A stretch of 64,000 nucleotides of DNA. Origin: Thermoleophilia bacterium. GTDB lineage: Bacteria > Actinomycetota > Thermoleophilia > Miltoncostaeales > Miltoncostaeaceae. The stretch lies in NCBI GenBank assembly GCA_028285405.1, contig JANQPH010000051.1, positions 1-64,000 on the forward strand. Direction: 5' to 3'. The notes beneath the pieces are model-generated. The model did not search any database. It was not told the origin of the DNA and saw nothing but the letters and a program-made list of their open reading frames with translations. Shown piece by piece: positions 35,394-52,562 of this stretch. Each line of letters starts with the position of its first letter. Position 1 is the first letter of the stretch. Both the position numbers and the translations under genes were made by a program.

Positions 35394-36005
35394 GTGGTCG
35401 CGGGACACGCCCGCGTCCTCACCCCGGCGATCGAGGCGCTCGTCGCCGAGCTCTCGCGCCTGCCCGGGATCGGCCCGCGCAGCGCGCAGCGGCTGGCGTT
35501 CCACCTGCTTCGCTCGCCGAGCGAGCGCCCCGCCGCGCTCGCCGCCGCGCTGTCGGTCGTCTCGGAGCGGGTCGGGCTCTGCAACGAGTGCTTCTCGTTC
35601 GCCGAGGACGGGGAGTGCCCGATCTGCACCGATCCCCGGCGTGATCGCTCGATCATCTGCGTGGTCGAGGAGCCGTCGTCGATCCTGCCGATCGAGCGCA
35701 CCCAGGAGTATCGAGGCCTCTACCACGTGCTGGGCGGGGCGCTCTCGCCGATCGACGGGATCGCCCCCGAGGATCTGAAGATCACCGAGCTCGTCGGCCG
35801 AGCCGAGCGTGACGAGGTCACCGAGCTCGTGATGGCGACCAACCCGACGATGGCCGGTGAGGCGACGGCGCTCTACCTGGCAGACGCCCTGCGCGGCGTC
35901 GTGCGGGTGACGCGCCTGGCCAGCGGCCTGCCGGTCGGCGCCGATCTCGAGCACGCCGACGAGCTGACGCTCGGGCGTGCCCTGGCGGGCCGCCAGGAGC
36001 TCTAG
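35394..36005 (+). CDS. recR: Recombination mediator RecR
   Basis: 203 aa from the GTG at 35394. It has the helix-hairpin-helix LSRLPGIGPRSAQRLAFHLL, the Cys4 zinc finger CNECFSFAEDGECPIC, and the Toprim domain with IICVVEEPSSILPIERTQEYRGLYHVLGG and later ELVMATNPTMAGEATALYLA. RecR works with RecO/RecF to load RecA at gaps. The 3' end overlaps the convergent DUF1116 gene by 4 bp. Confidence 0.95.
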   Translation: MVAGHARVLTPAIEALVAELSRLPGIGPRSAQRLAFHLLRSPSERPAALAAALSVVSERVGLCNECFSFAEDGECPICTDPRRDRSIICVVEEPSSILPIERTQEYRGLYHVLGGALSPIDGIAPEDLKITELVGRAERDEVTELVMATNPTMAGEATALYLADALRGVVRVTRLASGLPVGADLEHADELTLGRALAGRQEL

Positions 36006-37402
36006 GAGGCCCGCCCGGAACCGGCGGGCTGCGCCACGAGGGCGCGGAGCGCCGCGCGGAAGGGCTCGAGCGGGGCGGCCGCGACCCCGGCGCCGATCTG
36101 TCCGCCCTCGACCCGGTGGAGGATGCCGGTGTTGATGAGCGGGGTCTGGCCGAGGTCGAGCACCGCCCGCGCGTCGACGCCGAGCGGTGTGCCCTCGCCG
36201 TCGAGGGTCGGGATGCGGAACGTCTCGCTCTGGGCGAGGGTGATGTCGTCCATGTACCTGGTCCGCTCGACGGCATCCGCCAACGTGCCGCCCAGGAACG
36301 CCGCGACGCTCGGGCTGGCGGCGCTCGCGGCGGCCCCGAGGCCGCAGCACTCGATCAGGGCCGAGTCGCCGATGTCGGGGGCCGCGTCCGCGTCGCCGAC
36401 GCCGGGCCGGTAGAGCGCGTCGCCGACCATCTCGGCCGGCGCCGAGAACCACTGTCCGGGCAGGCCCGCCAGCTCGATCGCCGCGTCGACCCCGTTGCGG
36501 CTGACGAACGTGACCATGCTCGAGCCCTCGGTGCCGCGCATTCGCTCGAGCGCCACCCGGCAGGCCGCGATCGTGACCGTGAGCGCGAAGTGGCCGTTGT
36601 CGGCGAGCAGCCGGCCGACGTCCGCGACCGCGCCGGGGGCGTGCGCCCCCATCGAGCCGAGCGTCCGCCGGAGCAGCAGCATCGTCGCGGCTTGGTGGCG
36701 CATGTGGCAGTCGTCGCCCATCGCGACGGCCTCCGCGAGGAGCGGGAACACCTCGAGCGGACCGTCGGCGGACAGCGCGGCGTCGAACGCGGGCGCGACG
36801 ACGTCCGCGAGGAGTCGCTGCCGGGCGATCGCCTCGTCAGAGCCCACCCCGAGCCAGAAGGCGTCCCCCGGGCCGTCGCAGAGCGGCGAGAACGACGCGG
36901 TGCCCGACTCCTCGTCGCGCGTCTCCCAGACGGCCATCGACGGCGAGATGATCCCGGTCATCGCCCCCGCGGCGCCCAGGGAGTGGGTCGGCGCCAGGGC
37001 CACCTCACCGCGGGTGAGGAGCTCCACGGCGGCCGCGGTGTCGGGCGCCCACCCCTCGAACACGCAGGCTGCCGCCGCGGCGATCCGCTGGGGCGCGCAC
37101 ATGTCGGCGGCGTCGATCTTCGGGCCCGCGTGCAGGATCAGGCGCTCGCCCGCGACACCGGGGATGCGATCGGCGGCCGGACCGGCTCCGACCAGCACGG
37201 GCCGTGCGTCCGCCAGCATGGACAGCGCGGCGGCGTTGGCGCGCTCGATGCGCTGGTCGCCGTAGGCGCCGCCGAGCAGCGCGATGTCGTCGGCGCGCCC
37301 GCTGGCCGGGGGCTTCCAGTCGATCGCGATCGGATCGAGGCCCTGAGCGCGGAGCGCGTCCTCCATCAGCTCCAGCCCGGCGGTTGCCACCCGTAGGCTC
37401 AT
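36002..37402 (-). CDS. DUF1116 protein (YlbE/AllG-like oxamate transcarbamylase component)
   Basis: 466 aa from the ATG at 37402. It matches DUF1116 over its full length: WKPPASGRADD near the start, ANAAALSMLADARPVLVGAGPAADRIPG, LLTRGEVALAPTHSLGAAGAMTGIISPSM, FWLGVGSDEA and a C-terminal MDDITLAQSETFRIPTLDGEGTPLGVDARAVLDLGQTPLINTGILHR. In Escherichia coli the DUF1116 protein acts with FdrA and a DUF2877 protein as oxamate carbamoyltransferase. Homologues of both partners and a carbamate kinase lie at 46667, 51897 and 42131 here. Its start codon is 3 bp from the divergent start at 37406. Confidence 0.85.
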   Translation of the reverse strand: MSLRVATAGLELMEDALRAQGLDPIAIDWKPPASGRADDIALLGGAYGDQRIERANAAALSMLADARPVLVGAGPAADRIPGVAGERLILHAGPKIDAADMCAPQRIAAAAACVFEGWAPDTAAAVELLTRGEVALAPTHSLGAAGAMTGIISPSMAVWETRDEESGTASFSPLCDGPGDAFWLGVGSDEAIARQRLLADVVAPAFDAALSADGPLEVFPLLAEAVAMGDDCHMRHQAATMLLLRRTLGSMGAHAPGAVADVGRLLADNGHFALTVTIAACRVALERMRGTEGSSMVTFVSRNGVDAAIELAGLPGQWFSAPAEMVGDALYRPGVGDADAAPDIGDSALIECCGLGAAASAASPSVAAFLGGTLADAVERTRYMDDITLAQSETFRIPTLDGEGTPLGVDARAVLDLGQTPLINTGILHRVEGGQIGAGVAAAPLEPFRAALRALVAQPAGSGRAS

Positions 37403-37405
37403 CGC

Positions 37406-38347
37406 ATGAACCTTCTCGCACTCGCGGACGCGTGCGCCCGGCACCCCGGGCTCCAAGCCAAGCGCGACCTGGGCGCGGTCGCCGACGTGATCGGTGGCGA
37501 CGGCGACGATGCGGCGTTCCTTCCCGCGCCGGGTGGCGGGGAGACCGTCGCGGCCGCCGAGGCAATCGCGCCGGCGTTCGTTCGGGGCGCGCCCGAGGTG
37601 GCCGGCACCGCCGGCGTCGTGGCGGCGCTGAACGACATCGCCGCCAGCGGCGGCCGCCCGACGGCGTTGCTCGACACCGTCGTCGCTCCGAGCAGGGAGA
37701 TTCTCGAGGCGATCCTGCGGGGCGTGGCCCGCGGCTCGGATCTCGCCGGCGTGCCGGTGCGGGGAGGCCACGTGACCGTCGCGGCCGGCTCCGAGCCGGC
37801 GCTCTCGACCGCGGCCATCGGCCACACCGGTGCTCCACTCAGCTCGTCCGCGGCCAGGCCGGGCGACGAGGTCTCGCTCGCCGTCTGTCTGGACGGCGTG
37901 GCCGGCGATGCCGGCGGCATCGGGTTCTTCTCGCACCTGCGCGGGTCACGGCGGGGGCGCTGGCCCGACGACCTGGCCCTGCTCGCCGAGGTCGCCGAGG
38001 CGGGCGAGGCATGGGCCGCCCGCGACGTCTCGATGCCCGGGATCGTCGGCTCGCTCGTCCAGATGGCCGACGCGGCTGGCGGGCTCGGGGCGGAGCTCGA
38101 GCTCGACCGGATTCCGATCCCCGACGGTCTCCCGGTCGATCGCTGGCTCACCCTGTTCCCCTCGTACGCGTTCCTGCTGGTCGGTGAGGCGTCGCCGCTC
38201 GAGGGGCGCTTTGCGGCCGCCGGGCTCGCGTGCGCCAGGATCGGTCGTCTCGATGCGTCCGGCGTCGTTCGGCTCGTCGCCGGCGACCAAGTGGCGCCGG
38301 TCTGGGACCTGTCGCGCGAGCCGTTGACCGGACTCACCGGCCGCTGA
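37406..38347 (+). CDS. AIR-synthase-like ATP-binding protein (Sll0787/NitF type)
   Basis: 313 aa with the PurM/SelD/HypE layout. Early DLGAVADVIGGDGDDAAFLPAPGGGETVAAAEAI is the ATP-phosphate strand region. GTAGVVAALNDIAASGGRPTALLDTVV is the conserved dimer/nucleotide segment, and GVARGSDLAGVPVRGGHVTV is the glycine-rich loop. It matches the Sll0787 family of the Nit1C/nitrogen-starvation cluster, for which the substrate is not known. The GNAT, radical-SAM and Sll0783-type partners are adjacent on the other strand. No ribosome site is seen and the start almost touches the divergent DUF1116 start. Confidence 0.82.
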   Translation: MNLLALADACARHPGLQAKRDLGAVADVIGGDGDDAAFLPAPGGGETVAAAEAIAPAFVRGAPEVAGTAGVVAALNDIAASGGRPTALLDTVVAPSREILEAILRGVARGSDLAGVPVRGGHVTVAAGSEPALSTAAIGHTGAPLSSSAARPGDEVSLAVCLDGVAGDAGGIGFFSHLRGSRRGRWPDDLALLAEVAEAGEAWAARDVSMPGIVGSLVQMADAAGGLGAELELDRIPIPDGLPVDRWLTLFPSYAFLLVGEASPLEGRFAAAGLACARIGRLDASGVVRLVAGDQVAPVWDLSREPLTGLTGR

Positions 38348-38825
38348 GCGCGGCGCCGCTCTCCCACACGTCGGCGAGGCGTCCTCCGCGCGCGAGGCCG
38401 ATCGACATGCGCTGGTGCGGCACGCCGCGGTACTCGAACGGGTGGCCCATCGGCTCCCAGCCGAGCCGCTCGAAGAACCGGACGTTCGGGGTCTGGACCT
38501 GCGCGAGCATCAGCCCGCCGCCGAGGGCGGCCGCGGTCGCGACGGCGAAGCGGACCAGCTCGCGGGCGGTCGTCGTCCGCCGAGCCTCGGGGAGGACAGC
38601 CAGCCGGTCGCCCTTCCACAGCCCGGCCTCGTCGAGCGCGTAGAGCCGAACCGCCCCGATCACTTCACCGTCGCGAAGCGCGACGGCGTGGAGGGCCGAC
38701 TCGTCCCACGGATCACGGTCGCTTCCGTCGAACAGCCGCTGCTCCTCGACGAAGACCCGGGTCCGCACGGCCATGTGGGCGTCGAGCTCCACGGTGCTCG
38801 ACGCGATCCGGACCGTCGCCGGCAC
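38334..38825 (-). CDS. GNAT N-acetyltransferase of the MSMEG_0567/Sll0786 (NitE) family
   Basis: 163 aa single GNAT domain. HMAVRTRVFVEEQRLFDGSDRDPWDESALHAVALRDGEVIGAVRLY covers the N-terminal strands and the substrate side. The acetyl-CoA loop is GDRLAVLPEARRTTTARELVRFAVATA, in which the R-x-x-x-T-A-R pattern replaces the usual Q/R-x-x-G-x-G/A. The tail is FFERLGWEPMGHPFEYRGVPHQRMSIGL. This matches the nitrogen-starvation N-acetyltransferases encoded next to an AIR-synthase-like gene in Nit1C clusters. Its start follows the radical-SAM stop by 3 bp. Confidence 0.85.
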   Translation of the reverse strand: MPATVRIASSTVELDAHMAVRTRVFVEEQRLFDGSDRDPWDESALHAVALRDGEVIGAVRLYALDEAGLWKGDRLAVLPEARRTTTARELVRFAVATAAALGGGLMLAQVQTPNVRFFERLGWEPMGHPFEYRGVPHQRMSIGLARGGRLADVWESGAALSGR

Positions 38826-38828
38826 CCC

Positions 38829-39986
38829 TCAGTCGGCGGTGGGCGGCTCTATGCCGCTGCGGCCACCGCCGTGCAACCGCTCGAAGGTCGACAGCGCGGA
38901 GCAGGCCTGGCAGCGGACGCAGCCGGCGCGCGCGTTCTGGCTCAGCATGTCGGCGTCCGCAATCAGCGGGGCGACCGCGTCGTAGACGGCCTGGACCCGC
39001 TCCGGATCGGGTGGAGCCTCGCCCGAGAGGATGCTCCCGGGGCCCGGGCGCAGCGGGACGACGAACGGGTAGACGCCCCGGTCGATCGCGGCCTTGCAGC
39101 CGGCGACGATCGACTCCACGCTCTCGCCGAGGCCGATGATCAGGTAGGTCGAGACCTGGCCGTGGCCGAACACCTCGACGGCCGCATCCCACGCCGCCAG
39201 GTAGTGATCGACACCTTGGGCGTGCTTTCCGGGCGCGATCCGGGCCAGGATCTCCTCGTCGAAGGTCTCGAGGTGGAGCCCGAGCGCCTCGACCCCGGAC
39301 TCGGCCAAGTGCTCGAACCAGCTGAACTCGTCCGGCGGCTCGATCTGGACCTGAACCGGCAGGCCGCTCCGGTTCCGGATCGCCGCCGCGCACTTGGCCA
39401 TGTAGGCCGCCCCGCGATCGGTGCGGTTCGGTGTGCCCGTCGTCAGCGTCACGTCCTTCGCGCCGTCGAGTCGCGCCGCCGCCTCGGCCACCTCGGCGAG
39501 CATCTCGGGTGTCTTGGTGGGGACCGTGCGGCCCGCCTGGAGGCTGGTTCCGATCGCGCAGAAGTGGCACTGCTCGTGGGTGCCCCAGTACACGCAGCGC
39601 TGCATCACCGTCGAGGCGAGGCTGTCCATGTGCATCAGCGCGATCTTCCAGTACGGCACGCCGTCGGCCGTCTCGAGCTCGTAGATCTTCGGCCGCGGCG
39701 GCATCGTCACCCGGCCGACCTCCTCGCCGTCGCGATAGAGGGTGCCGCGGCGGGCGTGCCCGTTGCTTCCGAGGACGAGCTCGTACGGGCTGCTCGAGAC
39801 GTAGTCGCCGTGAACCGGCACGGTCAGGGGGGTGCCCTCGATCCAGATGAAGCCGGCATCCGAAGGACCGGCGCCACCCGCTCGGAGCTCCTCGCGGGGT
39901 GGGCGCGATTCCGCCCGCGTCCGCACACCGAGCGATTGCAGCTCGACCGCGAGGGTGCGGACGTCGATGGGTGCGGAGGTGCTCAC
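38829..39986 (-). CDS. Radical SAM protein of the MSMEG_0568/Sll0785 (NitD) family
   Basis: 385 aa from the GTG at 39986, overlapping the amidohydrolase stop by 4 bp. The presumed [4Fe-4S] site is CVYWGTHEQCHFC, spaced CX8CX2C rather than the standard CX3CX2C, and is followed by AIGTSLQAGRTVPTKTPEMLAEVAEAA. Barrel elements follow (VTLTTGTPNRTDRG, VQIEPPDEFSWFEHLAESGVEALGLHLE, TYLIIGLGESVES). A second cysteine group CVRCQACS stands near the C-terminus and may bind an extra cluster. The reaction is unknown; the gene is a core member of Nit1C clusters. Confidence 0.88.
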   Translation of the reverse strand: MSTSAPIDVRTLAVELQSLGVRTRAESRPPREELRAGGAGPSDAGFIWIEGTPLTVPVHGDYVSSSPYELVLGSNGHARRGTLYRDGEEVGRVTMPPRPKIYELETADGVPYWKIALMHMDSLASTVMQRCVYWGTHEQCHFCAIGTSLQAGRTVPTKTPEMLAEVAEAAARLDGAKDVTLTTGTPNRTDRGAAYMAKCAAAIRNRSGLPVQVQIEPPDEFSWFEHLAESGVEALGLHLETFDEEILARIAPGKHAQGVDHYLAAWDAAVEVFGHGQVSTYLIIGLGESVESIVAGCKAAIDRGVYPFVVPLRPGPGSILSGEAPPDPERVQAVYDAVAPLIADADMLSQNARAGCVRCQACSALSTFERLHGGGRSGIEPPTAD

Positions 39987-40846
39987 CAGCGCTCGCCGTG
40001 CAGCGTCTCGAAGTTCTCGTAGAGGACCATGCGCTTCAGTTCCTCCGAGACCGGCGCCCCCTCGATCTTCCAGTACTCGCCCATGAAGTCCGACCAGGGC
40101 TCGTCCGAGCCGAAGATCACGCGGTCGGCGCCGATCCCCTGCTTCTCGATCTCGACGAGCAGCCAGCGGGCGCCGAAGCCGACGGCCCACGACGTGTCGG
40201 TGTAGACCTTGTAGCCGTCGCGGATCCAGTCCATGAACTTCGGCACGAGCTTGATGTGTCCGCTCACGCCGCCGCCGAAGTGGACGAGGTGGATCTTCAC
40301 CCGCTTGCCATACTCCTCGACCAGCGGGATGAAGTTGTTGATGTCGCTCGCCCCGCCCGGCGAGGTGTGGAAGTGGAACACGTAGTCGTGCTCCTCGGCC
40401 ACCTTCATGCACTTGTCGGCGATCTCGCGCGTCTCGTCGTCCCACTCAGCCGGGTTCGGGTTCCCGCCCAAGAGGAACGTCGTCTTCAGCCCGAGGATCC
40501 CCGCCTCGCCCGCGTGCCGCAGCGCCTCCTCGGTGTGCTCCCGATCGCGGGGCAGGAACGAGACCCACAGGAGCCCGCGGATCCGGTCCGTCGAGCTCGC
40601 GGCCTCCATGACGACCGGGTTGAGGCCGAACGGCTGCTCGGGCTTCGGGATCCCGTAGTTCGACATGACCAGGCTGCGCTCGATCCCGTGCTGGTCCATG
40701 AACTTGAGGAAGTCCTTGGTCTTCGGGAAGTCGTAGACGATCGGCTTGACCGGATAGTCGATGCCATAGAAGGGCCAGGACTCGATCTCGCCGATGTGGC
40801 TGTGGCCGTCGATGACCTCACGCTTCATTCCGTCTGGCAGCGGCAC
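39983..40846 (-). CDS. Amidohydrolase-2 family metal-dependent hydrolase
   Basis: 287 aa TIM-barrel amidohydrolase. The first metal pair is the VIDGHSHIGE motif (H-x-H), a barrel His is in YVFHFHTSPGGASDINNF, another in KIHLVHFGGGVSG, and the late Asp is in RVIFGSDEPWSDF. All ligands for a mononuclear-metal amidohydrolase/decarboxylase of the ACMSD/4-oxalomesaconate-hydratase-like branch are present. In known Nit1C clusters a nitrilase occupies this position between the Sll0783 and radical-SAM genes, and none is seen here. C-N or C-C bond cleavage is possible. Confidence 0.82.
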   Translation of the reverse strand: MPLPDGMKREVIDGHSHIGEIESWPFYGIDYPVKPIVYDFPKTKDFLKFMDQHGIERSLVMSNYGIPKPEQPFGLNPVVMEAASSTDRIRGLLWVSFLPRDREHTEEALRHAGEAGILGLKTTFLLGGNPNPAEWDDETREIADKCMKVAEEHDYVFHFHTSPGGASDINNFIPLVEEYGKRVKIHLVHFGGGVSGHIKLVPKFMDWIRDGYKVYTDTSWAVGFGARWLLVEIEKQGIGADRVIFGSDEPWSDFMGEYWKIEGAPVSEELKRMVLYENFETLHGERW

Positions 40847-40857
40847 GGGGATCTCCT

Positions 40858-40895
40858 TTACGTGATCAGGCGGGCATTACGTGGTCAGGCGAGCA
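40858..40895. repeat. Tandem 19-bp duplication around a stop codon
   Basis: Two adjacent 19-bp copies, 40858-40876 and 40877-40895, starting TTACGTG(A/G)TCAGGCG and differing at two positions. They cover the end of the gene on 40885-41508 and the gap before the amidohydrolase. Each copy contains an in-frame TGA on the minus strand. Confidence 0.8.
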
Positions 40896-41508
40896 GTCGT
40901 CGTTCCAGCTCCTGCGCGGCGGCGCGCCATTCGCCGGGGTCGGTGAACTCGCGCGCCTCGGTGAGCGCGGGCTCGTTGGTTGCCTCTCCGGTCTCGGGGT
41001 CGAGCGCCACCGCCTCGAGCGTAAAGACGGGGGTCAGCGTGTCGGGGTCGAGCCGAGTCGACACCGCCACCGCATATCCCGTTCGTAGCGACATGCGCAC
41101 CCGCCGAAACGGTGGCCACATCTCGTTCTCGCCCTCGACCCAGATCGTCGCGACCGAGTCTCCCCGGTTGCCTGCGCGGCGGATCTCGTCGCGGGTCCGA
41201 TACACCGCCTCTCGCTGCGCGACCGAACGCTCGTACATCTGGTACGCCGCATCGCGCACCATGTCGAGCTCGACCTCGGGGGGGATGCCCGCAAGGTCGA
41301 CGCCGGCGTCGCGTAGGTCCTGCTCGGCCGTCGAGTTCAGGTAATGCGTGATCAGCGCATCGACGTCCGGGATGCGATCGAGATGCTCGACGAGCGAGCG
41401 GACCAGGCCAACGCACACCTCGTAGAGGTCCGGGCGTACGCTCGCGACCGGGTAGAGCCGCTCCTCGGCGGTTCTCCACGCTCGCTTGGCCTCGTCCCGC
41501 TCGCTCAC
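40885..41508 (-). CDS. Protein of unknown function in the Nit1C-like operon
   Basis: 207 aa from a GTG. Predicted helical at the N-terminus (ERDEAKRAWRTAEERLYPVASVRPDLYEVCVGLVRSLVEHLDRIPDVDALITHYL), then a mixed region with DAAYQMYERSVAQREAVYRTRDEI and a C-terminal beta part that reads like a small-ligand or DNA-unrelated domain (VATIWVEGENEMWPPFRRVRMSLRTGYAVAVSTRLDPDTLTPVFTLEAVALDPETGE). I do not recognise the family. It lies 16 bp after the Sll0783-type gene and 38 bp before the amidohydrolase, so it is in the same operon. Confidence 0.7.
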   Translation of the reverse strand: MSERDEAKRAWRTAEERLYPVASVRPDLYEVCVGLVRSLVEHLDRIPDVDALITHYLNSTAEQDLRDAGVDLAGIPPEVELDMVRDAAYQMYERSVAQREAVYRTRDEIRRAGNRGDSVATIWVEGENEMWPPFRRVRMSLRTGYAVAVSTRLDPDTLTPVFTLEAVALDPETGEATNEPALTEAREFTDPGEWRAAAQELERRLLA

Positions 41509-41524
41509 CCGGCCTGAGCCGGCC

Positions 41525-42010: not shown

Positions 42011-42037
42011 CGCCAGCTCCTTCGGTCGCAGGGTCCG

Positions 42038-42061
42038 CCACTCGCCGCGGTGAGCGAGTGG
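42038..42061. promoter_or_regulatory. Inverted repeat in the divergent region of the nitrogen cluster
   Basis: Perfect 8-bp arms CCACTCGC / GCGAGTGG around 8 nt, 28-51 bp upstream of the Sll0783-type start and 70 bp before the carbamate kinase start. It is either an operator shared by both divergent units or a leader hairpin. Confidence 0.45.
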
Positions 42062-42130
42062 CCGCGCACCGCGAGCCGAAGCGACAACCATTCTCGATAC
42101 GCTCGGCCACGTCAAGTCGGGGAGCACCCT

Positions 42131-45450: not shown

Positions 45451-46670
45451 CGGTCGTGCCGCCCGCCAACGCCGAGCGCCTCGCGGAGCGGTTCGGCACC
45501 CCCCTCTACGTCTTCGACGGGGCCGCGGCCGCCCGCGCCGCCAAGGGCTTCCAGGCCGCGTGGGGCCCGAACGACACGATCGCCTACTCGCTGAAGTGCA
45601 ACCCGCTCGTGGGGCTTGTGGCCCGGCTCGCCGGTGCGGGCTGCGCGACCGAGGTGGCGTCGGGGTTCGAGTACCGGATCGCGCGGCGAGCCGGCGTGCC
45701 CGGCTCCCGAATCATCTTCAACGGACCGCTGAAGCGTCCGGACGAGCTCGTGCGGGCGCTGCGCGAGGGCGCGACGATCATCCTCGACGGCGCCGACCAG
45801 GTGCGGGCCGCGGCGGCGGTGGCCGCGGAGGCCGCACCACAGGCGAGGATCGGGCTGCGCGTCACGCCACCGTGGCGGGAGCGAACGGATCGCTTCGGGG
45901 TTCCCTCGCGAATGGTCGCTCCCGCCGCGCGGATGCTCGCCCGGGCGGGCCTGACGCTCACCGGGTTGCACATGCATCTGGGCGCCTACCAGCTGGGTCC
46001 GCTTCCGCCGTCCGGGCCGCCGATCCACGCCGTCAACGTCGAGTACCCGGTGTCGGTCGAGCTGTTCGCCCGCATGGCGCGTGTGCTCCGGGAGCTCGCG
46101 GACGATGTCGGTGGGATCGAGTGGCTCGACCTCGGTGGCGGCTGGCCGGCGCCGTGGGACCTGGCCGACCACGTCTCCGCCGTGGAAGCGGCCCTCGGCC
46201 CGGATCGGCCCCCGCTGATCCTGGAGCCCGGCCGCGCGCTGATCCGCGACGCCGGCTGGCTGCTCGTGCGCGTCGTCGCCAGGCGCGGCCGCCATGCGGC
46301 GATCGTCGACGCCGGCGTCACGCAGGTCCCGTGCGTGCTGTGGAAGCGCTCCCCCGTCCACCCGGCCGCGCCCCGTTCCGGCCCGGAGCGTCCGACGGAC
46401 CTGTTCGGGCCCTTGTGCCTGCAGCACGACGCGATCGCCCGGGAGGTGCCGCTGCCGCCGCTCGCCGAGGGGGACCTGCTCTGGATCGGGCAGACCGGGG
46501 CGTACGCGATCTCCCAGGCATCGCCGTTCATCCATCCTCGTGCCGGGGCGGTGCTGCTCGAGGGCGAGCAGGCGGTGATGCTGCGCTTTCCCGAGACCGA
46601 CGAGGAGGCGCTCGGGCCGCAGGCCGAGCCGCTGCTCACGGGGCCCGAGTCGAGGCCGATGCCGGTATGA
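45447..46670 (+). CDS. Fold-type III PLP decarboxylase (diaminopimelate decarboxylase-like)
   Basis: 407 aa. The PLP lysine is Lys50 in YSLKCNP. The barrel continues with GCATEVASGFEYRIARRAGV, GLHMHLGAY (PLP-binding His), EWLDLGGGWPAPWD and the phosphate/carboxylate-binding LILEPGRALIRDAG. The C-terminal beta domain carries DLFGPLCLQHD, the GPxCx3D motif that donates the partner-subunit Cys. It is related to LysA but diverged; housekeeping lysine genes (lysC, asd) are elsewhere. Here it is sandwiched between the flavin monooxygenase and fdrA with overlaps on both sides, so it probably decarboxylates a pathway intermediate. Confidence 0.85.
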   Translation: MTVVPPANAERLAERFGTPLYVFDGAAAARAAKGFQAAWGPNDTIAYSLKCNPLVGLVARLAGAGCATEVASGFEYRIARRAGVPGSRIIFNGPLKRPDELVRALREGATIILDGADQVRAAAAVAAEAAPQARIGLRVTPPWRERTDRFGVPSRMVAPAARMLARAGLTLTGLHMHLGAYQLGPLPPSGPPIHAVNVEYPVSVELFARMARVLRELADDVGGIEWLDLGGGWPAPWDLADHVSAVEAALGPDRPPLILEPGRALIRDAGWLLVRVVARRGRHAAIVDAGVTQVPCVLWKRSPVHPAAPRSGPERPTDLFGPLCLQHDAIAREVPLPPLAEGDLLWIGQTGAYAISQASPFIHPRAGAVLLEGEQAVMLRFPETDEEALGPQAEPLLTGPESRPMPV

Positions 46671-48139
46671 GCATCGCGACCCGGATCCATCGCGGCCAGT
46701 GGGTCGACAGCGCCCGGCTGATGCAGGCCGCGCGGGCGGCTCGAGAGGTCGATGGGGTCGAGGACGCCGCCTGCTTCATGGGCACCCCCGCCAACCTGGA
46801 CGAGGCCAGGTCGCTCGGGTTGTGGAACGGGTCCCAGGACGAGGCCGCGCCCGACGACGTCGTCATCGTCGCTCGCGGCGACGACGCGGAGCGGGGTGTC
46901 GCCGCCGCGGACGCCGCGCTCGCCGCCTCGGACGCGCCGGCGGCTGCCGGGCCCGCGATGCGGGCGCCGCGGTCGCTGCGATCGGTGGACGCCGATCTCG
47001 CGATCGTGTCGGTGCCGGGCGAGTACGCGGCCATCGACGGCCACAAGGCGCTCGCCGCGGGGATGGACGTGCTCCTGTTCAGCGACGGCGTGAGCATCGA
47101 GGACGAGCTCCGCCTGAAGCGGCGCGCCCACGAGCTGGGGCTGCTGGTCATGGGTCCTGGCGCCGGGACGGCCATCGTGGACGGGGTCGCGCTCGGCTTC
47201 GCCAACGTCGTCGCGCCCGGGACCGTCGGCGTTGCCGCCGCGGCCGGCACCGGCGCGCAGGAGGTCACCGTGCTCGTCGGCCGGCACGGCGCCGGGGTCA
47301 GCACGTGCTTCGGCACGGGCGGCCGCGACCTGTCCGAGGAGATCGGCGCGATCACCATGCTCGACAGCATCGAGCGGCTCGCCCGGGACGACGGCACCGA
47401 TGTCGTCCTCGTCGTCTCGAAGCCGCCGGCGGACGACGTCGCCGAGCAGGTGCTCGGCGCGCTCGAGGCGGCCGGCAAGCCCGCGGTCGCGTGTTTCGTC
47501 GGCGCCCGCCCGCCGGCGCGACCCGGGGTGCACGTCGCCGACACGCTCGCCCACGCGGCGCAGATCGCCGCGACCCTGGCGGGAGGGCACGTCTCCGGCG
47601 AGGATCGCCCAGCCGACGTTCCCTCTCGTCGCAGCGGATTCGTGCGCGGCCTGTTCTCGGGCGGGACGCTCTGCAGCGAGGCCTCGGCGATCCTCGCGGA
47701 GGGGCTGCCAGAGGTGCGCTCGAACGCTCCCGCCGGCCGCGCGGAGCGCCTCGAGGCGGGCGAGTGGCCGCCCGGGCATGTCTGCATCGACATGGGGGAA
47801 GAGGAGTACACCCGCGGCCGTCCGCACCCGATGATCGACCCCGGCCCGCGCGCCGAGGCGGTCGGCCGGGAGGGCGCTCGGCCGGACACCGCCGTCCTGC
47901 TGCTGGACGTCGTGCTCGGCTACAGCAGCCACCCTGACCCCGCCGGTGTGCTCGCGCCCGCGATCGTGCAGGCCCGTCGGACCAACCCGGACCTCGCCGT
48001 GGTCGCCCACGTCCTCGGCACCGAGGAGGACCCGCAGGTCCAGTCCCGGCAAGAGGCGACGCTGCAGGACGTCGGCGCGGAGCTGGCGGCGACGAACGCC
48101 GACGCGGTGGGGCGCGCGCTCGAGCACGTCCGCTCGTGA
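46667..48139 (+). CDS. fdrA: FdrA/AllF-like acyl-CoA-synthetase-related protein (oxamate transcarbamylase component)
   Basis: 490 aa. The N-terminal RIHRGQWVDSARLMQAARAAREVDGVEDAACFMGTPANLDEARSLG is typical of FdrA. The CoA-binding-like domain has IVSVPGEYAAIDGHKALAAGMDVLLFSDGVSIEDELRLKRRAHELGLLVMGPGAGTAIVDGVALGFAN. A succinyl-CoA-ligase-like domain follows (STCFGTGGRDLSEEIGAITMLDSIERLA ... GGTLCSEA ... CIDMGEEEYTRGRPHPMIDPGPR). Together with DUF1116 and DUF2877 proteins it forms the E. coli oxamate carbamoyltransferase. Start and stop both overlap neighbours by 4 bp, inside one operon. Confidence 0.9.
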   Translation: MSIATRIHRGQWVDSARLMQAARAAREVDGVEDAACFMGTPANLDEARSLGLWNGSQDEAAPDDVVIVARGDDAERGVAAADAALAASDAPAAAGPAMRAPRSLRSVDADLAIVSVPGEYAAIDGHKALAAGMDVLLFSDGVSIEDELRLKRRAHELGLLVMGPGAGTAIVDGVALGFANVVAPGTVGVAAAAGTGAQEVTVLVGRHGAGVSTCFGTGGRDLSEEIGAITMLDSIERLARDDGTDVVLVVSKPPADDVAEQVLGALEAAGKPAVACFVGARPPARPGVHVADTLAHAAQIAATLAGGHVSGEDRPADVPSRRSGFVRGLFSGGTLCSEASAILAEGLPEVRSNAPAGRAERLEAGEWPPGHVCIDMGEEEYTRGRPHPMIDPGPRAEAVGREGARPDTAVLLLDVVLGYSSHPDPAGVLAPAIVQARRTNPDLAVVAHVLGTEEDPQVQSRQEATLQDVGAELAATNADAVGRALEHVRS

Positions 48140-49299
48140 TCCGGATCGTCACCTACTCCACCAAGCCACGGGGAGGGGTCGTCCACGCCCTCGCGCTCGC
48201 CGAGTCGCTCGAGCGCCTGGGGGCCGATGTCGAGCTCTGGGCGCTGTCGCCCGACGGGGCGGGCTTCTTCCGCGAGCCGGCGGCGTCGACCCGGCTCGTG
48301 CCCGTGCCCCGCGACGAGCACGAGGACATCGAGACGCGGATCCTGCGCTACGCCGACACGCTGGCCGATGCGCTGGCGAGCGCCGAGCCGGCCGACGTCC
48401 ACCACGCCGAGGACTGCCTGTCGGCGCGGGCGCTTCTTCGGCTGCGAGGCGAGGGCGAGATCGCGTCGGTCGTCAGGACCATCCACCACGTCGACGACTT
48501 CGAGAGCCCCGTCCTGACCGAATGCCAGCGCGCGTCGATCCAGGACGTCGACCACCGCGTCTGCGTCTCCCGGTGGTGGGCCGACCGGGTGCGAGCGGAC
48601 TTCGGCGTCGACGCCGCGGTGATCCCGAACGGGATCGACGCCGAGCGGTTCCGGTCGTGTCCGGCGAGCCGTGAGGGCGCCGGTGCCACGTTCGGGTGGG
48701 GCGACCGACCGACCGTGCTCTCGGTCGGGGGCGTGGAGCCGCGCAAGGGGAGCCGCGAGCTGCTCGCCGCGTTCGCCCGGGCCCGCGCTCGCCTGCGCCC
48801 CCGCGCGCTGCTCGTCGTCGCCGGCGGCGCGACGCTCTTCGACTACTCCGGCTATCGGGACGCGTGGCGCGCCGACGCCGAGCGGCTCGGCCTGCGCGTG
48901 GCCGAGGGGCGGCCCGCCGACACCGACGACGTCGCGGTGCTCGGGCCGGTTCCCGACGACCAGATGCCGGCCCTCTATCGCGCCGCCGACACCGTGGCCT
49001 TCCCCTCGATCAAGGAGGGCTTCGGCCTCGTCCCGTTCGAGGCGATGGCGGCGGGCACCCCGGTCGTGACCAGCGACCTTCCGGTGCTCGAGGAGCACCT
49101 GACGTCCGGCCACGACTGCCTGATGGTGGATCCGTCCGACGAGGTCGCGCTGTCCGACGCGCTCGTTCGCGTCACCACCGATGGCGACCTTCGCGCCTCG
49201 CTGGTCCGAGCCGGGCGGCTGACCGCGCACGAGCTGACGTGGGAGCGCGCGGCTCGATCCCACCTCGATCTCTATGAGCGGACGCTGTCTCGTGTCTGA
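48136..49299 (+). CDS. GT4-type glycosyltransferase of the MSMEG_0565 family
   Basis: 387 aa GT-B fold. The N-terminal domain begins MIRIVTYSTKPRGGVVHALALAESLERLGADVELWAL with the acceptor-side glycine loop GGVVHALALAE and has TIHHVDDF. The C-terminal domain has SVGGVEPRKGSRELLAAFARA (donor diphosphate site) and the E-x7-E motif in IKEGFGLVPFEAMAAGTPVVTSDLPVLEE. This family is encoded in mycobacterial Nit1C/MSMEG_0565-0572 clusters; its product is unknown. Translationally coupled to fdrA by a GTGA overlap. Confidence 0.88.
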   Translation: MIRIVTYSTKPRGGVVHALALAESLERLGADVELWALSPDGAGFFREPAASTRLVPVPRDEHEDIETRILRYADTLADALASAEPADVHHAEDCLSARALLRLRGEGEIASVVRTIHHVDDFESPVLTECQRASIQDVDHRVCVSRWWADRVRADFGVDAAVIPNGIDAERFRSCPASREGAGATFGWGDRPTVLSVGGVEPRKGSRELLAAFARARARLRPRALLVVAGGATLFDYSGYRDAWRADAERLGLRVAEGRPADTDDVAVLGPVPDDQMPALYRAADTVAFPSIKEGFGLVPFEAMAAGTPVVTSDLPVLEEHLTSGHDCLMVDPSDEVALSDALVRVTTDGDLRASLVRAGRLTAHELTWERAARSHLDLYERTLSRV

Positions 49300-49720
49300 C
49301 GAGTACGCGACGTGGACCGCGCGCTGGCGCGGGGGCTACGCGTCAGACGTCGAGGGCCGAGGTTTCGCGCTGCGGGTGGACGAGCCACCCGAGGCCGGCG
49401 GCGAGGACACCGGCCCGATGCCGACCGAGCTCATCGCCGCCGCGCTCGCCTCGTGCTTCGTGGCTGCCGTCGCGTGGGCGGCCGGGAAGCGTCGCATCGA
49501 GCTCGACGATCTCCGGGTCGACGTCACGCCGGAGCGCGCCCCCGGCGAGCCCCGGCACGGGGGCTACGAGATCGTCGTCACCTCCTCCACGCCGGAGGAG
49601 GTCCTGCGACCCGCGTTCGAGCTCGCCACCCGCTACTGCTGGGTGAGCAACACGCTGCGCCAGCCTCCGACGCTCGTCTATCGGTTGGCGAGCGGAACTC
49701 GCTCCGACGCCTCCGGTTGA
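49292..49720 (+). CDS. OsmC/Ohr-family protein
   Basis: 142 aa from the GTG at 49292 (an ATG at 49274 inside the glycosyltransferase gene is the alternative). ATWTARWRGGYASDVEGRGFALRVDEPPEAGGEDTGPMPTELIAAALASCFVAAVAWAAGKRRIELDDLRVDVTP is the standard OsmC half. One peroxidatic-position Cys is in LASCFVAAV and the second family Cys is in TRYCWVSNTL, so thiol-peroxidase chemistry is possible. It may protect against the monooxygenase's by-products or act on thiol adducts; that is inference. Confidence 0.82.
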   Translation: MSDEYATWTARWRGGYASDVEGRGFALRVDEPPEAGGEDTGPMPTELIAAALASCFVAAVAWAAGKRRIELDDLRVDVTPERAPGEPRHGGYEIVVTSSTPEEVLRPAFELATRYCWVSNTLRQPPTLVYRLASGTRSDASG

Positions 49721-49757
49721 GGTAGCGTCACCTCAACACGAGCGGGAGGCGCCCCCA

Positions 49758-51092
49758 ATGCCCGACCCCCAACGCATCTGCGTCATCGGTGGTGGAGCCG
49801 CCGGGATCAGTGCGGGTTCGATGGCCAAGCGGACGAATCCGGATGCCACCGTCACCGTCTGCACGGAGTTCGAGGACGTCGCGTACTCCCCGTGCGGGAT
49901 CCCCTACGTGCTGGCACGAGAGATCCCCGACTTCGAGCGGCTGTTCCTGGCCGGACCCGAGCAGTATGCGGAGGCGGGCATCGACCTGCGCCGCGAGACC
50001 GTCGTCAGCGAGGTCGATGCGCAGGCGCAGACGCTGGTGGCCAACGGCGAGACCCTCTCGTGGGACCGGCTGATCATCTGCACGGGGTTCAACTACCTGC
50101 TGCCGGACCTGCCGGGCGCGGATCTCGACGGGGTCACCTTCGTCAAGAACATCCGCAGGGCGATCGAGCTCGACACGACGCTGGACGGGGTCAAGCGCGC
50201 CGTCGTGCTCGAGTCGACGCCGCTCGGGGTGGAGATGCTCGCGGCGCTGGCCCACCGCGGGATCGAAACGCACCTGGTCGACTCGGGGAGCTGGCTGCTG
50301 TCGCAGGTGGCGGACCCCGACATCGCCGAGCCCGTCCAGAAGAGCCTCGAGTCGCTCGGCGTCACCCTCCACTTCGGCGTTGAGGCCGAGGCGTTCGAGG
50401 GCGCCAACGGAGCGCTCGAGCGGGTCACTACGAACCACGGTCCCATCGACGCGGACTTGTGCATCGTCGCCACCCACAAGGAGCCCGAGACGACGATCGC
50501 GCGCTCGATCGGCGTCAAGGTCGGCTCGACAGGCGGCATCGAGGTGAACGGTCAGATGGAGACCTCGCTGGAGGGGGTCTACGCCGCGGGGGACGCCGTC
50601 GAGGTGCCCCAGGGCTTCACCGGGCTGGCGGTTCAGGGGCTGACCGGCTCCCACGCGATGCAGCAGGGCCGGGTGGCCGGAGCCAACGCGGGTGGCGGCT
50701 CGCGGACCTACGACCCGGTCTACGTGCCGTGGGGGATGGTGGGCGGCACCGTGCAGATCGGCGGGGCGAGCTTCGGCGAGCACCTGGCCGAGAGCCTCGG
50801 GATTCCGCACATCGTCGCCCGCGCCAACGGGATCAGCCGGGCGCGGTACTACCCGGGGGTCCAGCAGGTGATCGTGAAGCTGCTCGCCGAGCCCGGGACG
50901 GGCAAGCTGATCGGCGCGCAGATGGTCGGCGGGGAAGGCGTCAAGGAGCGGGCCGACTTCCTGGCGTTCGCGCTGAAGCGCGGAGCGACGCTCGAGGACC
51001 TCGCCTTCATGGAGAACGTGTACTCGCCACCGATCGGGGCGCTGTACGAGCCGATGTCGGTGGCGGCCCAGAACGGCATGGCCCAGCTGTGA
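49758..51092 (+). CDS. FAD/NAD(P)-dependent disulfide reductase (CoA-disulfide reductase/NADH oxidase family)
   Basis: 444 aa. FAD-binding ICVIGGGAAGISAGSMAKR is at the N-terminus and the single redox Cys sits in AYSPCGIPYVL, as in CoA-disulfide reductases and NADH oxidases. Then come an LIICTGFNYLLP motif, an NAD-binding stretch (AVVLESTPLGVEMLAAL, with Glu in place of the usual GxG start, so nucleotide affinity is uncertain) and the second FAD motif GVYAAGDAVEVP. A dimerisation domain follows (GTVQIGGASFGEHLAESLG ... LIGAQMVGGEGVKERADFLAFAL). It may keep CoA, persulfide or mixed thiols reduced for the cluster. Confidence 0.82.
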   Translation: MPDPQRICVIGGGAAGISAGSMAKRTNPDATVTVCTEFEDVAYSPCGIPYVLAREIPDFERLFLAGPEQYAEAGIDLRRETVVSEVDAQAQTLVANGETLSWDRLIICTGFNYLLPDLPGADLDGVTFVKNIRRAIELDTTLDGVKRAVVLESTPLGVEMLAALAHRGIETHLVDSGSWLLSQVADPDIAEPVQKSLESLGVTLHFGVEAEAFEGANGALERVTTNHGPIDADLCIVATHKEPETTIARSIGVKVGSTGGIEVNGQMETSLEGVYAAGDAVEVPQGFTGLAVQGLTGSHAMQQGRVAGANAGGGSRTYDPVYVPWGMVGGTVQIGGASFGEHLAESLGIPHIVARANGISRARYYPGVQQVIVKLLAEPGTGKLIGAQMVGGEGVKERADFLAFALKRGATLEDLAFMENVYSPPIGALYEPMSVAAQNGMAQL

Positions 51093-51535
51093 GCGCTCAC
51101 GACGACATCCCGGAGGCGGTGCGCGGCTATTTCGGCCACGACAAGGTGTCGCTGTTCGGCGAGGGCGGCATGCCCGCGGCGCCACCGGCGCCGCCCGGCT
51201 CGCCGGCGCGAAAGCAGGGCGAGGCCGCGAGGGCGGACGCGCTGGCCAAGGCGGGGACGCCGGGCGAGCGTCCCGGGAGCCGACCGACGGCGAGGGCTCC
51301 GCGGGCACGGCCCGGGCGGTGGTTTCGCGACCACGGCGAGCAGGCGCTCTACGAGGACACGATGCGACGTCTCGTTCGCCGGTACGGAGGGGTTCCCCCG
51401 GCGCGCGAGGCGGGGTGGTTCTGGCGCGACGTGTTCGTGCCGCTCTACCGAGCCATGCCGTGGCGGGTCCGTCGGCCGGCCGTGAACGTCGGCTCCTCGG
51501 CTCGCGGATGGCGTCGCGGCGGCGGCAGCGCCTGA
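51089..51535 (+). CDS. Protein of unknown function coupled to the flavoprotein
   Basis: 148 aa from the GTG at 51089, overlapping the flavoprotein stop by 4 bp. Residues 1-30 (AHDDIPEAVRGYFGHDKVSLFGEGGMP) look ordered. Residues ~30-80 are Pro/Ala/Arg low complexity. The C-terminal ~60 residues (DHGEQALYEDTMRRLVRRYGGVPPAREAGWFWRDVFVPLYRAMPWRVRRPAVN) are helical and rich in aromatic and basic residues. No family recognised. Confidence 0.6.
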   Translation: MSAHDDIPEAVRGYFGHDKVSLFGEGGMPAAPPAPPGSPARKQGEAARADALAKAGTPGERPGSRPTARAPRARPGRWFRDHGEQALYEDTMRRLVRRYGGVPPAREAGWFWRDVFVPLYRAMPWRVRRPAVNVGSSARGWRRGGGSA

Positions 51536-51539
51536 GCCG

Positions 51540-51842
51540 CTAGGGATCGACGATCTCGAACGCCTCGGGCGGCAGTCCAGGGCCGCACAGGCCGGTGTCG
51601 AGCACGTATCGCGCCCCGTCGGTGTCGTCGCGCAGATGAACCACGAAGCAGGGCAACCCGATCTCGGTGCGCTCGGCGTAGTCGAGCACCGTGAACGTCG
51701 TCCGCATGGCCTCGCGATGGCGCAGGAGGCGGCACGCGCCCATGCCGAGGTCTTCGCGCCGCTGGACGACGAACGGTCCCATCTCGATGGTCTGCCGGAC
51801 CCGGGTGCCGATGTCCGGGCGCAGCCACGTGTCGAGGTTCAC
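51540..51842 (-). CDS. Small protein of unknown function
   Basis: 100 aa from a GTG at 51842. The sequence is well balanced and protein-like (MGPFVVQRREDLGMGACRLL ... TTFTVLDYAERTEIGLPCFVVHLRDDTDGARYVLDTGL), with two cysteines. It ends in PPEAFEIVDP. It is convergent to the gene ending at 51535 and divergent from the DUF2877 gene; the opposite strand here is less protein-like, which is why this strand was chosen. No family recognised. Confidence 0.5.
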   Translation of the reverse strand: MNLDTWLRPDIGTRVRQTIEMGPFVVQRREDLGMGACRLLRHREAMRTTFTVLDYAERTEIGLPCFVVHLRDDTDGARYVLDTGLCGPGLPPEAFEIVDP

Positions 51843-51896
51843 CGGTGGGCGTCCCTGTACGCGTGGTCGTGGCTCTGCCGGGCGGATCGGGTCGAG

Positions 51897-52562
51897 GTGC
51901 TCGGGCGGGGGAGGGGGATGCTCCACCTCCTCGCCTCGGGGGTGGTCGTCACCCTCGCCGGGCCGCGGACCCTGCTCCTGGCCAACGCGATCTCCGTCAC
52001 CTCCGCCGGTGAGATTCCGCTCCGCCCGCGGCTCGTCGATCCGCGGGTGTCGCCGATCGAGATGATGCCCGCCGGACGCACTCGAGGCCTGGCTGAGGCG
52101 CTCTGCGCGCGGACCGAGCTGGGCTCGAGCAGCCGCGGGCGCCTGGGTCTCGTGCGCCTCGAGGAGGCCCTCCTGACCGGCGACCCGCGCGACGGGCAGC
52201 GCGCCGCCGGCGCGCTGCTCGGGCTCGGGCCCGGCCTCACGCCCGAGGGCGACGACGTCCTGGTGGGCGCCGCGCTGGCGGTCGCCGCCGCCGGGCGGGC
52301 GGCGGGCCTGCGTCCGGCTCCTCGCCGCCGCCTGCTGGCGGCCCTCTGTCCCACCGACGCCCACGGCCGGACGACGCGGCTGTCGGCGACACTGCTCCGG
52401 CTCGCGGCCGTGGGCGCGGGCCCGGAGCCGTTCGGGCGGGTGGTGCGCGGCGACCGCTCGGCTCGCCTGGAGCTCTCGCGGCTCGGCGCCAGCAGTGGAC
52501 GCGCCCTACTGGCCTCGGCCGATCGGTCTCTCGGGGCGCTCTCAGCCCGGGTCGGTGACTGA
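51897..52562 (+). CDS. DUF2877 protein (YlbF/AllH-like oxamate transcarbamylase component)
   Basis: At least 221 aa. It shows the DUF2877 signature AAGALLGLGPGLTPEGDDVLVGAALAVAAAG with the family's G-x-GLTP-x-GDD core, a later LSATLLRLAAVGAGPEPFGRVV and a C-terminal LGASSGRALLASADRSLGAL. The protein family pairs with FdrA and DUF1116 proteins. The N-terminus is uncertain: similarity to YlbF appears to extend about 15 residues upstream (SLYAWSWLCRADRVEV), but there is no in-frame ATG/GTG there, so a CTG near 51855 or another start is possible. The 3' end overlaps the convergent DsbA-like gene by 21 bp. Confidence 0.8.
   Translation: MLGRGRGMLHLLASGVVVTLAGPRTLLLANAISVTSAGEIPLRPRLVDPRVSPIEMMPAGRTRGLAEALCARTELGSSSRGRLGLVRLEEALLTGDPRDGQRAAGALLGLGPGLTPEGDDVLVGAALAVAAAGRAAGLRPAPRRRLLAALCPTDAHGRTTRLSATLLRLAAVGAGPEPFGRVVRGDRSARLELSRLGASSGRALLASADRSLGALSARVGD

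What the first reader, a model, noticed from the sequence alone, without database searches (positions are those of the whole stretch)
36002..52562. Interleaved Nit1C-like and oxamate-transcarbamylase modules: a possible undescribed nitrogen-salvage system
Seen: within 16.6 kb lie Sll0783-, Sll0785-, Sll0786- and Sll0787-type genes plus an MSMEG_0565-type glycosyltransferase, and also DUF1116, carbamate kinase, FdrA and DUF2877 genes. Between them sit an LLM flavin monooxygenase, a DAP-decarboxylase-like enzyme, an aminotransferase-fold protein, an amidohydrolase, OsmC and a disulfide-reductase-like flavoprotein, many coupled by 4-bp overlaps. Known: Nit1C genes are linked to nitrogen starvation and cyanide assimilation; FdrA/DUF1116/DUF2877 with carbamate kinase are the E. 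coli oxamate transcarbamylase system (AllFGHK). Inference: oxidation, hydrolysis and decarboxylation of a nitrogen compound feed a carbamoyl transfer that yields carbamoyl phosphate, then ATP + NH3 + CO2.
Basis: partly seen in the sequence, partly recalled or inferred. Interest (0 to 1): 0.88.

Follow-up and report, generated by a model that had tools for sequence, protein, structure and literature searches.

The report
Nitrogen-starvation cluster fused with carbamoyl-phosphate module
A conserved bacterial gene cluster joins the core of a poorly understood nitrogen-starvation (cyanide-linked) pathway to an enzyme set that turns a urea-like group into carbamoyl phosphate and ATP; it occurs across several bacterial phyla, has no match in the papers searched here, and suggests a testable chemistry for the old pathway.

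Summary
Window 36002-52562 carries a Nit1C-type core (NitB/Sll0783, NitD radical SAM, NitE GNAT, divergent NitF, MSMEG_0565 glycosyltransferase) interleaved with AllF/FdrA, AllG, AllH and carbamate kinase. It is one conserved unit: OXTCase or carbamate-kinase genes lie on the NitB/NitD contig in 37 independent genomes, from Miltoncostaeaceae (this genome), Solirubrobacterales and other Actinomycetota to Chloroflexota, Dadabacteria and one MAG labelled Bacillota.

The 49 classifiable loci of the main table split cleanly. Type A (13) has nitrilase-superfamily genes, mostly with NitG/NitH, and no AllFGH/kinase. Type B (36, this one) has the reverse. A NitD tree needs one change, so this is one deep split, not many replacements. 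The type A hydrolase is nearest to ureido-hydrolases, so AllFGH plus kinase looks like a phosphorolytic, ATP-yielding alternative to hydrolysis of the same ureido bond (inference).

Allantoin origin is unlikely: no AllD or over-cut-off allantoinase in this 97.6% complete MAG. Substrate, product and direction remain unknown. A new variant of two known systems.

The parts
36002..37390 (-). AllG / DUF1116, oxamate carbamoyltransferase subunit. The ~45-residue N-terminal extension resembles the C-terminus of E. coli AllF
   Evidence: PF06545 194 bits; 35% identity to E. coli AllG over 409 aa; solved homologue 3clq
37406..38347 (+). NitF-like AIRS/PurM-fold protein (Sll0787/MSMEG_0567 C-terminal type, divergent)
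   Evidence: TIGR04049 213 bits, below its cut-off of 321; AIRS domains PF00586/PF02769; conserved in the cluster
38334..38825 (-). NitE GNAT N-acetyltransferase (Sll0786/MSMEG_0567 N-terminal type)
   Evidence: TIGR04045 114 bits over cut-off
38829..39986 (-). NitD radical SAM protein (MSMEG_0568 / Sll0785 type), Cys-x8-Cys-x2-Cys plus conserved C-terminal cysteines
   Evidence: TIGR04043 422 bits over cut-off; conserved Cys at >=90%
39983..40828 (-). Amidohydro_2 family metal hydrolase with intact His/Asp metal motifs
   Evidence: PF04909; HxH, HFH, H, D invariant in the cluster; no close solved relative
40885..41508 (-). Unknown conserved cluster protein ('unk885'); confident model without a match to solved folds
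   Evidence: 29 of 36 type B loci, 0 of 13 type A; AlphaFold pLDDT 96.7; Foldseek PDB best E 0.12
41525..42010 (-). NitB / Sll0783 / MSMEG_0572, DsrE fold with near-invariant Cys114
   Evidence: TIGR04044 200 bits; Foldseek hits DsrE 3pnx and YchN 1jx7; Cys conservation
42131..43066 (+). Carbamate kinase (AllK/ArcC type)
   Evidence: TIGR00746 340 bits, PRK12352 over cut-off; 41% identity to E. coli AllK
43063..44436 (+). Aminotransferase-fold protein without the PLP lysine (Thermoleophilia accessory)
   Evidence: PF00155; Lys replaced by His in homologues, residue deleted here
44449..45450 (+). SsuD-like LLM flavin monooxygenase (Miltoncostaeaceae accessory)
   Evidence: PF00296; nearest TIGR03565, below cut-off; 8 of 36 type B loci
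45447..46670 (+). DAP-decarboxylase-like PLP enzyme (Thermoleophilia accessory)
   Evidence: PF02784/PF00278; PLP Lys and catalytic-type Cys kept
46667..48139 (+). AllF / FdrA, oxamate carbamoyltransferase subunit, lacking the E. coli C-terminal ~55 aa
   Evidence: NF004760 444 bits over cut-off; 41% identity to E. coli AllF over 483 aa
48136..49299 (+). MSMEG_0565-family glycosyltransferase
   Evidence: TIGR04047 408 bits over cut-off
49292..49720 (+). OsmC-like protein with two conserved cysteines
   Evidence: PF02566; Cys conservation
49758..51092 (+). CoA-disulfide / persulfide reductase-like flavoprotein with redox Cys (SPCGIPY)
   Evidence: TIGR03385-like, below cut-off; solved relatives 6ruz, 5l1n, 8a56; Cys conserved
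51089..51535 (+). Small conserved cluster protein, motif FWrxVFvPvYRxxPWxxR; overlaps the CoADR stop by 4 bp
   Evidence: 20 of 36 type B loci, 0 of 13 type A; coordinates
51540..51842 (-). Small gene (100 aa) conserved in Miltoncostaeaceae between the small protein gene and allH; unknown
   Evidence: tblastn 63-69% identity in L032, L033, L037, L038
51897..52562 (+). AllH / DUF2877, oxamate carbamoyltransferase subunit; start codon uncertain (reader gave 51636)
   Evidence: PF11392 50 bits; profile match begins at 51903; start analysis

Best explanation
The window holds a complete type B cluster: the NitB/NitD/NitE/NitF core and MSMEG_0565-type glycosyltransferase of the Nit1C/gpr nitrogen-starvation clusters, in which the C-N hydrolase (nitrilase superfamily) and its partners NitG and NitH are absent and the three-subunit carbamoyltransferase AllFGH, a carbamate kinase, an amidohydrolase, a CoA-disulfide-reductase-like flavoprotein, OsmC and two unknown proteins are present instead. 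Most likely mechanism: the NitB/D/E/F core and the metal amidohydrolase produce or open an N-carbamoyl (ureido) intermediate; AllFGH cleaves it with phosphate to an amine or amide plus carbamoyl phosphate; carbamate kinase turns that into ATP and carbamate (NH3 + CO2). Type A clusters would hydrolyse an equivalent bond with an N-carbamoyl-amidase-like enzyme and gain no ATP. OsmC, the CoADR-like protein and the DsrE-fold NitB would handle a thiol or persulfide cofactor or redox balance. Shown: gene content, conservation as a unit, the split from the nitrilase type, subunit conservation, lack of allantoin genes. Inferred: ureido substrate, catabolic direction, role of each core enzyme.
For: Conserved unit in 37 independent genomes: 36 in the table plus the Chloroflexota genome G987/L148. 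A tree of NitD places type B in one block, 100% support on the separating branch, with a single A/B change. Both types occur in one family (f5): e.g. G158, G383, G403 are A and G392, G554, G740 are B. Type B: 0 of 36 with nitrilase, NitG or NitH; type A: 0 of 13 with AllF/G/H or CK. Type A hydrolase beside NitB (read in L091) is nearest to N-carbamoylputrescine amidase TIGR03381 (8e-30), against 8e-10 for the Nit6803 nitrilase family, and to solved N-carbamoylputrescine, beta-ureidopropionase and N-carbamoyl-D-amino-acid hydrolases, with E-K-C residues and a CYDKAFPE motif. AllF, AllG and CK align with E. coli AllF/G/K at 35-41% identity, and E. coli AllFGH is a demonstrated oxamate transcarbamylase (PMC11326118). 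No AllD over cut-off in 24 type B genomes; none at all in this one. From the AllG side, 11 of 20 NitB genomes in an even sample have AllG within about 11 kb, while 35 others carry a higher-scoring AllG class, 8 of which were read and lie in separate AllFGHK-type cassettes without Nit genes. The type A core is induced >100-fold by nitrogen starvation in M. smegmatis (PMC6039565).
Against: The A/B split rests on one change in the tree, so it could reflect two clusters with different substrates rather than equivalent endings. Nitrilase-superfamily substrate cannot be read from similarity at this distance. AllFGH is reversible (PMC11326118), so a biosynthetic direction is open. Two type A loci (L090, L093) also carry an amidohydrolase homologue, so that gene is not a marker of the phosphorolytic route. 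Regulation in this genome was not tested. AllF here lacks the C-terminal segment of E. coli AllF, and no activity is known for this subfamily. In Pseudomonas the NitC of Nit1C is reported to act on nitriles (PMC11049912), which does not fit a ureido intermediate there.
Confidence: 0.45

Rival explanations
1. Biosynthetic direction: carbamate kinase and AllFGH use ATP, NH3 and CO2 to install a carbamoyl group on a metabolite that NitD, NitE, NitF and the glycosyltransferase then build into a glycosylated nitrogen or thiol compound (storage, redox buffer or signal) made under nitrogen stress.
For: Glycosyltransferase, GNAT, radical SAM and an AIRS-type ATP enzyme are typical of a biosynthetic pathway; the GT also matches MshA-type enzymes below cut-off. 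AllFGH is measured in the oxalurate-forming direction (PMC11326118). M. smegmatis gpr changes NADPH and peroxide resistance rather than acting as a simple catabolic route (PMC6039565). OsmC and the CoADR-like gene suggest a thiol link.
Against: The kinase matches the catabolic E. coli AllK at 41%. The related clusters are induced by nitrogen starvation, when spending NH3 and ATP on carbamoyl phosphate is costly. Type A has a hydrolase at the corresponding place, which points to release.
Confidence: 0.27
2. Oxalurate/oxamate (purine or allantoin) salvage: AllFGHK does its E. coli job on imported or internally made oxalurate, and the Nit genes are only neighbours.
For: AllFGHK of E. coli does this (PMC11326118). 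Comammox and archaea carry allFGHK without upstream purine genes (PMC12625717). 9 of 24 type B genomes have an unlinked allantoinase over cut-off.
Against: No AllD in this genome and none over cut-off in 24 type B genomes; allantoinase is below cut-off here and in 15 of 24. The tight and repeated joining with NitB/D/E/F and 4-bp overlaps argue for one pathway. The type B AllG forms a lower-scoring subfamily distinct from the ordinary cassettes.
Confidence: 0.13
3. Cyanide/nitrile assimilation variant: the cluster still handles HCN-derived compounds, with the amidohydrolase and AllFGH replacing nitrilase chemistry after a nitrile has been hydrated or converted to a carbamoyl compound.
For: Nit1C is linked to cyanide assimilation in Pseudomonas (PMC11049912), and the NitB/D/E/F core is shared. 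The AIRS fold includes HypE, which handles a carbamoyl-to-cyano conversion (established knowledge).
Against: No nitrilase of the Nit6803 type over cut-off in any of the 29 NitB-bearing actinobacterial genomes searched. The NitF-like protein does not end in a HypE-type cysteine tail (sequence). No cyanide gene was found in the cluster.
Confidence: 0.1

Closest known systems
Nit1C cluster (nitBCDEFGH; Synechocystis sll0783-0787)
   Same: NitB, NitD, NitE and a divergent NitF lie together; nitrogen-starvation families by NCBIfam name
   Different: No NitC nitrilase, NitG or NitH; AllFGH, carbamate kinase, amidohydrolase, OsmC, CoADR-like and unknown genes are added
M. smegmatis gpr cluster MSMEG_0565-0572 (GlnR-dependent)
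   Same: Same core plus the MSMEG_0565 glycosyltransferase family
   Different: gpr-type loci (e.g. L091) carry two carbon-nitrogen hydrolases, the MSMEG_0569 flavoprotein and MSMEG_0570 in place of AllFGH/CK; GlnR control not tested here
E. coli allFGHK (oxamate transcarbamylase + catabolic carbamate kinase)
   Same: All three subunits and the kinase are present, 35-41% identical for AllF, AllG and AllK
   Different: Genes scattered over both blocks of one cluster; no allantoin genes; C-terminal segment of AllF missing, with a similar segment apparently at the N-terminus of AllG; AllG of a distinct subfamily
Comammox/AOA allFGHK next to triuret/biuret genes (PMC12625717)
   Same: AllFGHK used outside a complete allantoin pathway
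   Different: No report there of a Nit1C core alongside

Membership tests
Nit1C | NitB (Sll0783 family) | tested here: met
   TIGR04044 200 bits, cut-off 110
Nit1C | NitD radical SAM | tested here: met
   TIGR04043 422 bits, cut-off 304
Nit1C | NitE GNAT | tested here: met
   TIGR04045 114 bits, cut-off 68
Nit1C | NitF AIRS-like | tested here: inconclusive
   TIGR04049 is the best family but 213 bits is below the cut-off of 321
Nit1C | NitC nitrilase | tested here: not met
   None in the cluster; no TIGR04048 match in G000 at E<=0.001
Nit1C | NitG and NitH | tested here: not met
   Profiles built from L091 NitG/NitH find none in any type B locus
Nit1C | Cyanide or nitrile assimilation | not testable with these tools
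   Needs culture experiments
Oxamate transcarbamylase (AllFGH) + AllK | AllF/FdrA | tested here: met
   NF004760 444 bits, cut-off 433
Oxamate transcarbamylase (AllFGH) + AllK | AllG and AllH | tested here: met
   PF06545 194 bits; PF11392 50 bits
Oxamate transcarbamylase (AllFGH) + AllK | Carbamate kinase | tested here: met
   PRK12352 288 bits, cut-off 266; TIGR00746 340, cut-off 358, just below
Oxamate transcarbamylase (AllFGH) + AllK | Carbamoyl transfer to oxamate | not testable with these tools
   Enzyme assay needed
Allantoin catabolism (AllBCD to AllFGHK) | AllD ureidoglycolate dehydrogenase | tested here: not met
   No match in G000; none over cut-off in 24 type B genomes
Allantoin catabolism (AllBCD to AllFGHK) | Allantoinase | tested here: not met
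   Best in G000 200.8 bits, cut-off 357.85
gpr (MSMEG_0565-0572) | MSMEG_0565 glycosyltransferase | tested here: met
   TIGR04047 408 bits
gpr (MSMEG_0565-0572) | Two carbon-nitrogen hydrolases, MSMEG_0569, MSMEG_0570 | tested here: not met
   Absent from the window
gpr (MSMEG_0565-0572) | GlnR-dependent expression | not tested
   The NitB/CK intergenic DNA was only aligned; no conserved box was established

The most novel reading that the evidence does not exclude
The Nit1C/gpr core acts on an N-carbamoyl (ureido) metabolite rather than a nitrile in these lineages, and the pathway has interchangeable endings: a hydrolytic one (carbamoylase-like CN-hydrolase, type A) and a phosphorolytic, ATP-conserving one (AllFGH + carbamate kinase, type B), so AllFGH is a general ureido phosphorolase and not only an allantoin enzyme.
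Probability: 0.33. Interest if true: 0.78.

Novelty: new variant of a known kind. Interest (0 to 1): 0.6.

Why it matters
Nit1C-type genes are widespread and strongly induced by nitrogen starvation, yet what their core enzymes (NitB, NitD, NitE, NitF) do has no settled answer. Finding the same core stably joined to enzymes of known chemistry (carbamoyl transfer to phosphate, carbamate kinase) gives a concrete guess at the intermediate, and shows AllFGH in a context other than allantoin breakdown. Purified AllFGH from this cluster could be used to screen for the unknown substrate. The cluster also contains a protein (unk885) whose confident model matched no solved structure.

Tried and rejected
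(1) The six-frame ORF list alone misled: several long ORFs are antisense; a codon model plus family scans gave the gene set. (3) Idea that the amidohydrolase replaced the nitrilase: weakened, because two nitrilase-type loci carry it too. (4) Fisher p = 1.9e-8 for exclusivity is not independent evidence: the tree shows a single change. (5) Allantoin origin tested and not supported. (6) LLM, decarboxylase-like and aminotransferase-like genes as core steps: rejected on distribution and, for the last, on the missing lysine. (7) Conserved operator in the NitB/CK intergenic region of Miltoncostaeaceae: nothing convincing. (8) Direct comparison of the E. coli AllF C-terminus with the window AllG N-terminus was weak (E 0.014); the relocation is supported mainly by family-model hits at AllG N-termini in other type B genomes. 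(9) PDB sequence searches for amidohydrolase and NitB gave nothing; Foldseek placed NitB (DsrE fold) but not unk885. (10) Loci found with the amidohydrolase probe are biased for that gene and are not used to claim its frequency. (11) Literature searches found no paper describing this combination in the held library; subscription papers and preprints were not covered.


Full report
What is there. A codon-usage gene model with Pfam and NCBIfam scans gives 18 genes between recR and dsbA. Minus strand: AllG, NitE, NitD, amidohydrolase, unk885, NitB, with the AIRS gene on plus between AllG and NitE. Plus strand: carbamate kinase, aminotransferase-like, LLM, decarboxylase-like, AllF, glycosyltransferase, OsmC, CoADR-like, a small protein, AllH; a small minus-strand gene (51540-51842) lies before AllH.

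It is one conserved unit. The window lies in a 2.4 Mb, 97.6% complete MAG, placed by its relatives in Miltoncostaeaceae. In the same order, FdrA orthologues at 59-65% identity sit in the same gene order in several genera. A probe with the amidohydrolase in a named collection found 23 loci at 51% identity or more in Thermoleophilia, other Actinomycetota, Chloroflexota, Dadabacteria and one MAG labelled Bacillota, nearly all with FdrA, AllG, AllH or CK nearby. A probe with NitB in 397 evenly drawn Actinomycetota, unbiased for the other genes, gave 20 over-cut-off genomes. Ten of them have OXTCase/CK genes beside NitB, seven have nitrilase-type genes, and three are cut by contig ends. Counting from AllG, 11 of those 20 have AllG within about 11 kb, whereas 35 other genomes have a higher-scoring AllG class; the eight of these that I read lie in AllFGHK-type cassettes without Nit genes.

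Two types. With profiles built from the loci, 55 independent NitB/NitD loci fall into 36 with AllFGH/CK (type B), 13 with nitrilase-superfamily genes (type A) and 6 undecidable; none has both. NitG and NitH occur only in type A; unk885, OsmC, the small protein and the XRE-cupin regulator only in type B. A later fetch added one more Chloroflexota type B locus, L148, giving 37 type B genomes in all. A NitD tree of 44 rows needs a single A/B change, so the contrast is one old event followed by spread of whole clusters, including into the same family (f5 holds both types). I therefore do not lean on the Fisher value.

What the contrast suggests. The type A hydrolase beside NitB is closest to N-carbamoylputrescine amidase and to solved ureido-hydrolases, with Glu, Lys and Cys of the nitrilase superfamily in place and a CYDKAFPE motif. 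AllFGH of E. coli splits oxalurate, also an N-carbamoyl compound, with phosphate (PMC11326118). The simplest common reading is a ureido intermediate, hydrolysed in type A and phosphorolysed in type B, with carbamate kinase recovering ATP. This step is inference. Chemistry at these similarities is not proof, and Pseudomonas NitC is reported to act on nitriles (PMC11049912).

LLM occurs in 8 and the decarboxylase-like gene in 13 of 36 type B loci, confined to Miltoncostaeaceae and to Thermoleophilia respectively. The aminotransferase-fold protein lacks the PLP lysine in every homologue (His instead; deleted here). They cannot be the general pathway.

Source of the ureido compound. No AllD in this genome and none over cut-off in 24 type B genomes; allantoinase over cut-off in only 9 of 24 and not here. 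So allantoin is not the general source.

Other core proteins. NitB is predicted as a DsrE fold with a near-invariant cysteine, in line with earlier authors' remark on MSMEG_0572 (PMC6039565). Together with OsmC and a CoADR-like enzyme with conserved redox cysteines this points to a thiol or persulfide role, and the type A gpr cluster gives peroxide resistance and a higher NADPH ratio in M. smegmatis (PMC6039565). unk885 has a confident model and no match among solved structures.

Conclusion. By membership it is neither Nit1C (NitC, NitG, NitH absent) nor the E. coli allantoin system (AllD, allantoinase absent), but a stable joining of parts of both. I found no description of it in the held literature, which lacks most subscription papers and preprints.

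Noticed in passing
L090, L091, L092, L093 (type A loci), hydrolase gene next to the glycosyltransferase; e.g. L091:15340-16191: A second nitrilase-superfamily paralogue has Asp in place of the catalytic Cys (LIDYDKTFPE, LVDHDK) in all four loci.
   Followed up: partly
window 43063-44436 and homologues: Aminotransferase-fold protein with the PLP lysine replaced by His in homologues and the residue deleted in this genome.
   Followed up: partly
AllG N-terminus, window 37255-37390 region; L073 13358-13510, L076 13485-13670: The C-terminal ~55 residues of the E. coli AllF family model match the start of AllG in several type B genomes, as if a segment had moved between subunits; weak for the window itself.
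   Followed up: partly
L065, L066, L067, L068, L099, L103, L105, between regulator and CoADR-like gene: A recurring ATAGTAAA-type motif beside the XRE-cupin (PuuR-like) regulator of type B clusters; the regulator was not found in the window's own cluster.
   Followed up: no
L042-L046 (genus g12 of the same family): Small genomes keep only AllG, an FdrA lacking its N-terminal ~100 residues, and the MSMEG_0565-type glycosyltransferase, without any Nit core gene nearby.
   Followed up: partly
L147, L150, L151, L152, L153, L073, L076, L082: A DUF7714 protein (PF24830) recurs beside type B clusters outside Miltoncostaeaceae.
   Followed up: no
L069:2598-3476 and 3466-4002 and relatives: Solirubrobacterales clusters add a methyltransferase (PF12147) and a small protein without known family between OsmC and the aminotransferase-like gene.
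   Followed up: no
L154, L155, L156, L157: Three genomes with nitrilase-side NitB loci (G158, G383, G137) and G213, which has no NitB match, carry an orphan AllG without FdrA far from any Nit gene.
   Followed up: no
L037 9233-10649, L038 1523-2858: FdrA is in two reading-frame pieces in two genomes of genus g11, a frameshift or assembly error.
   Followed up: no
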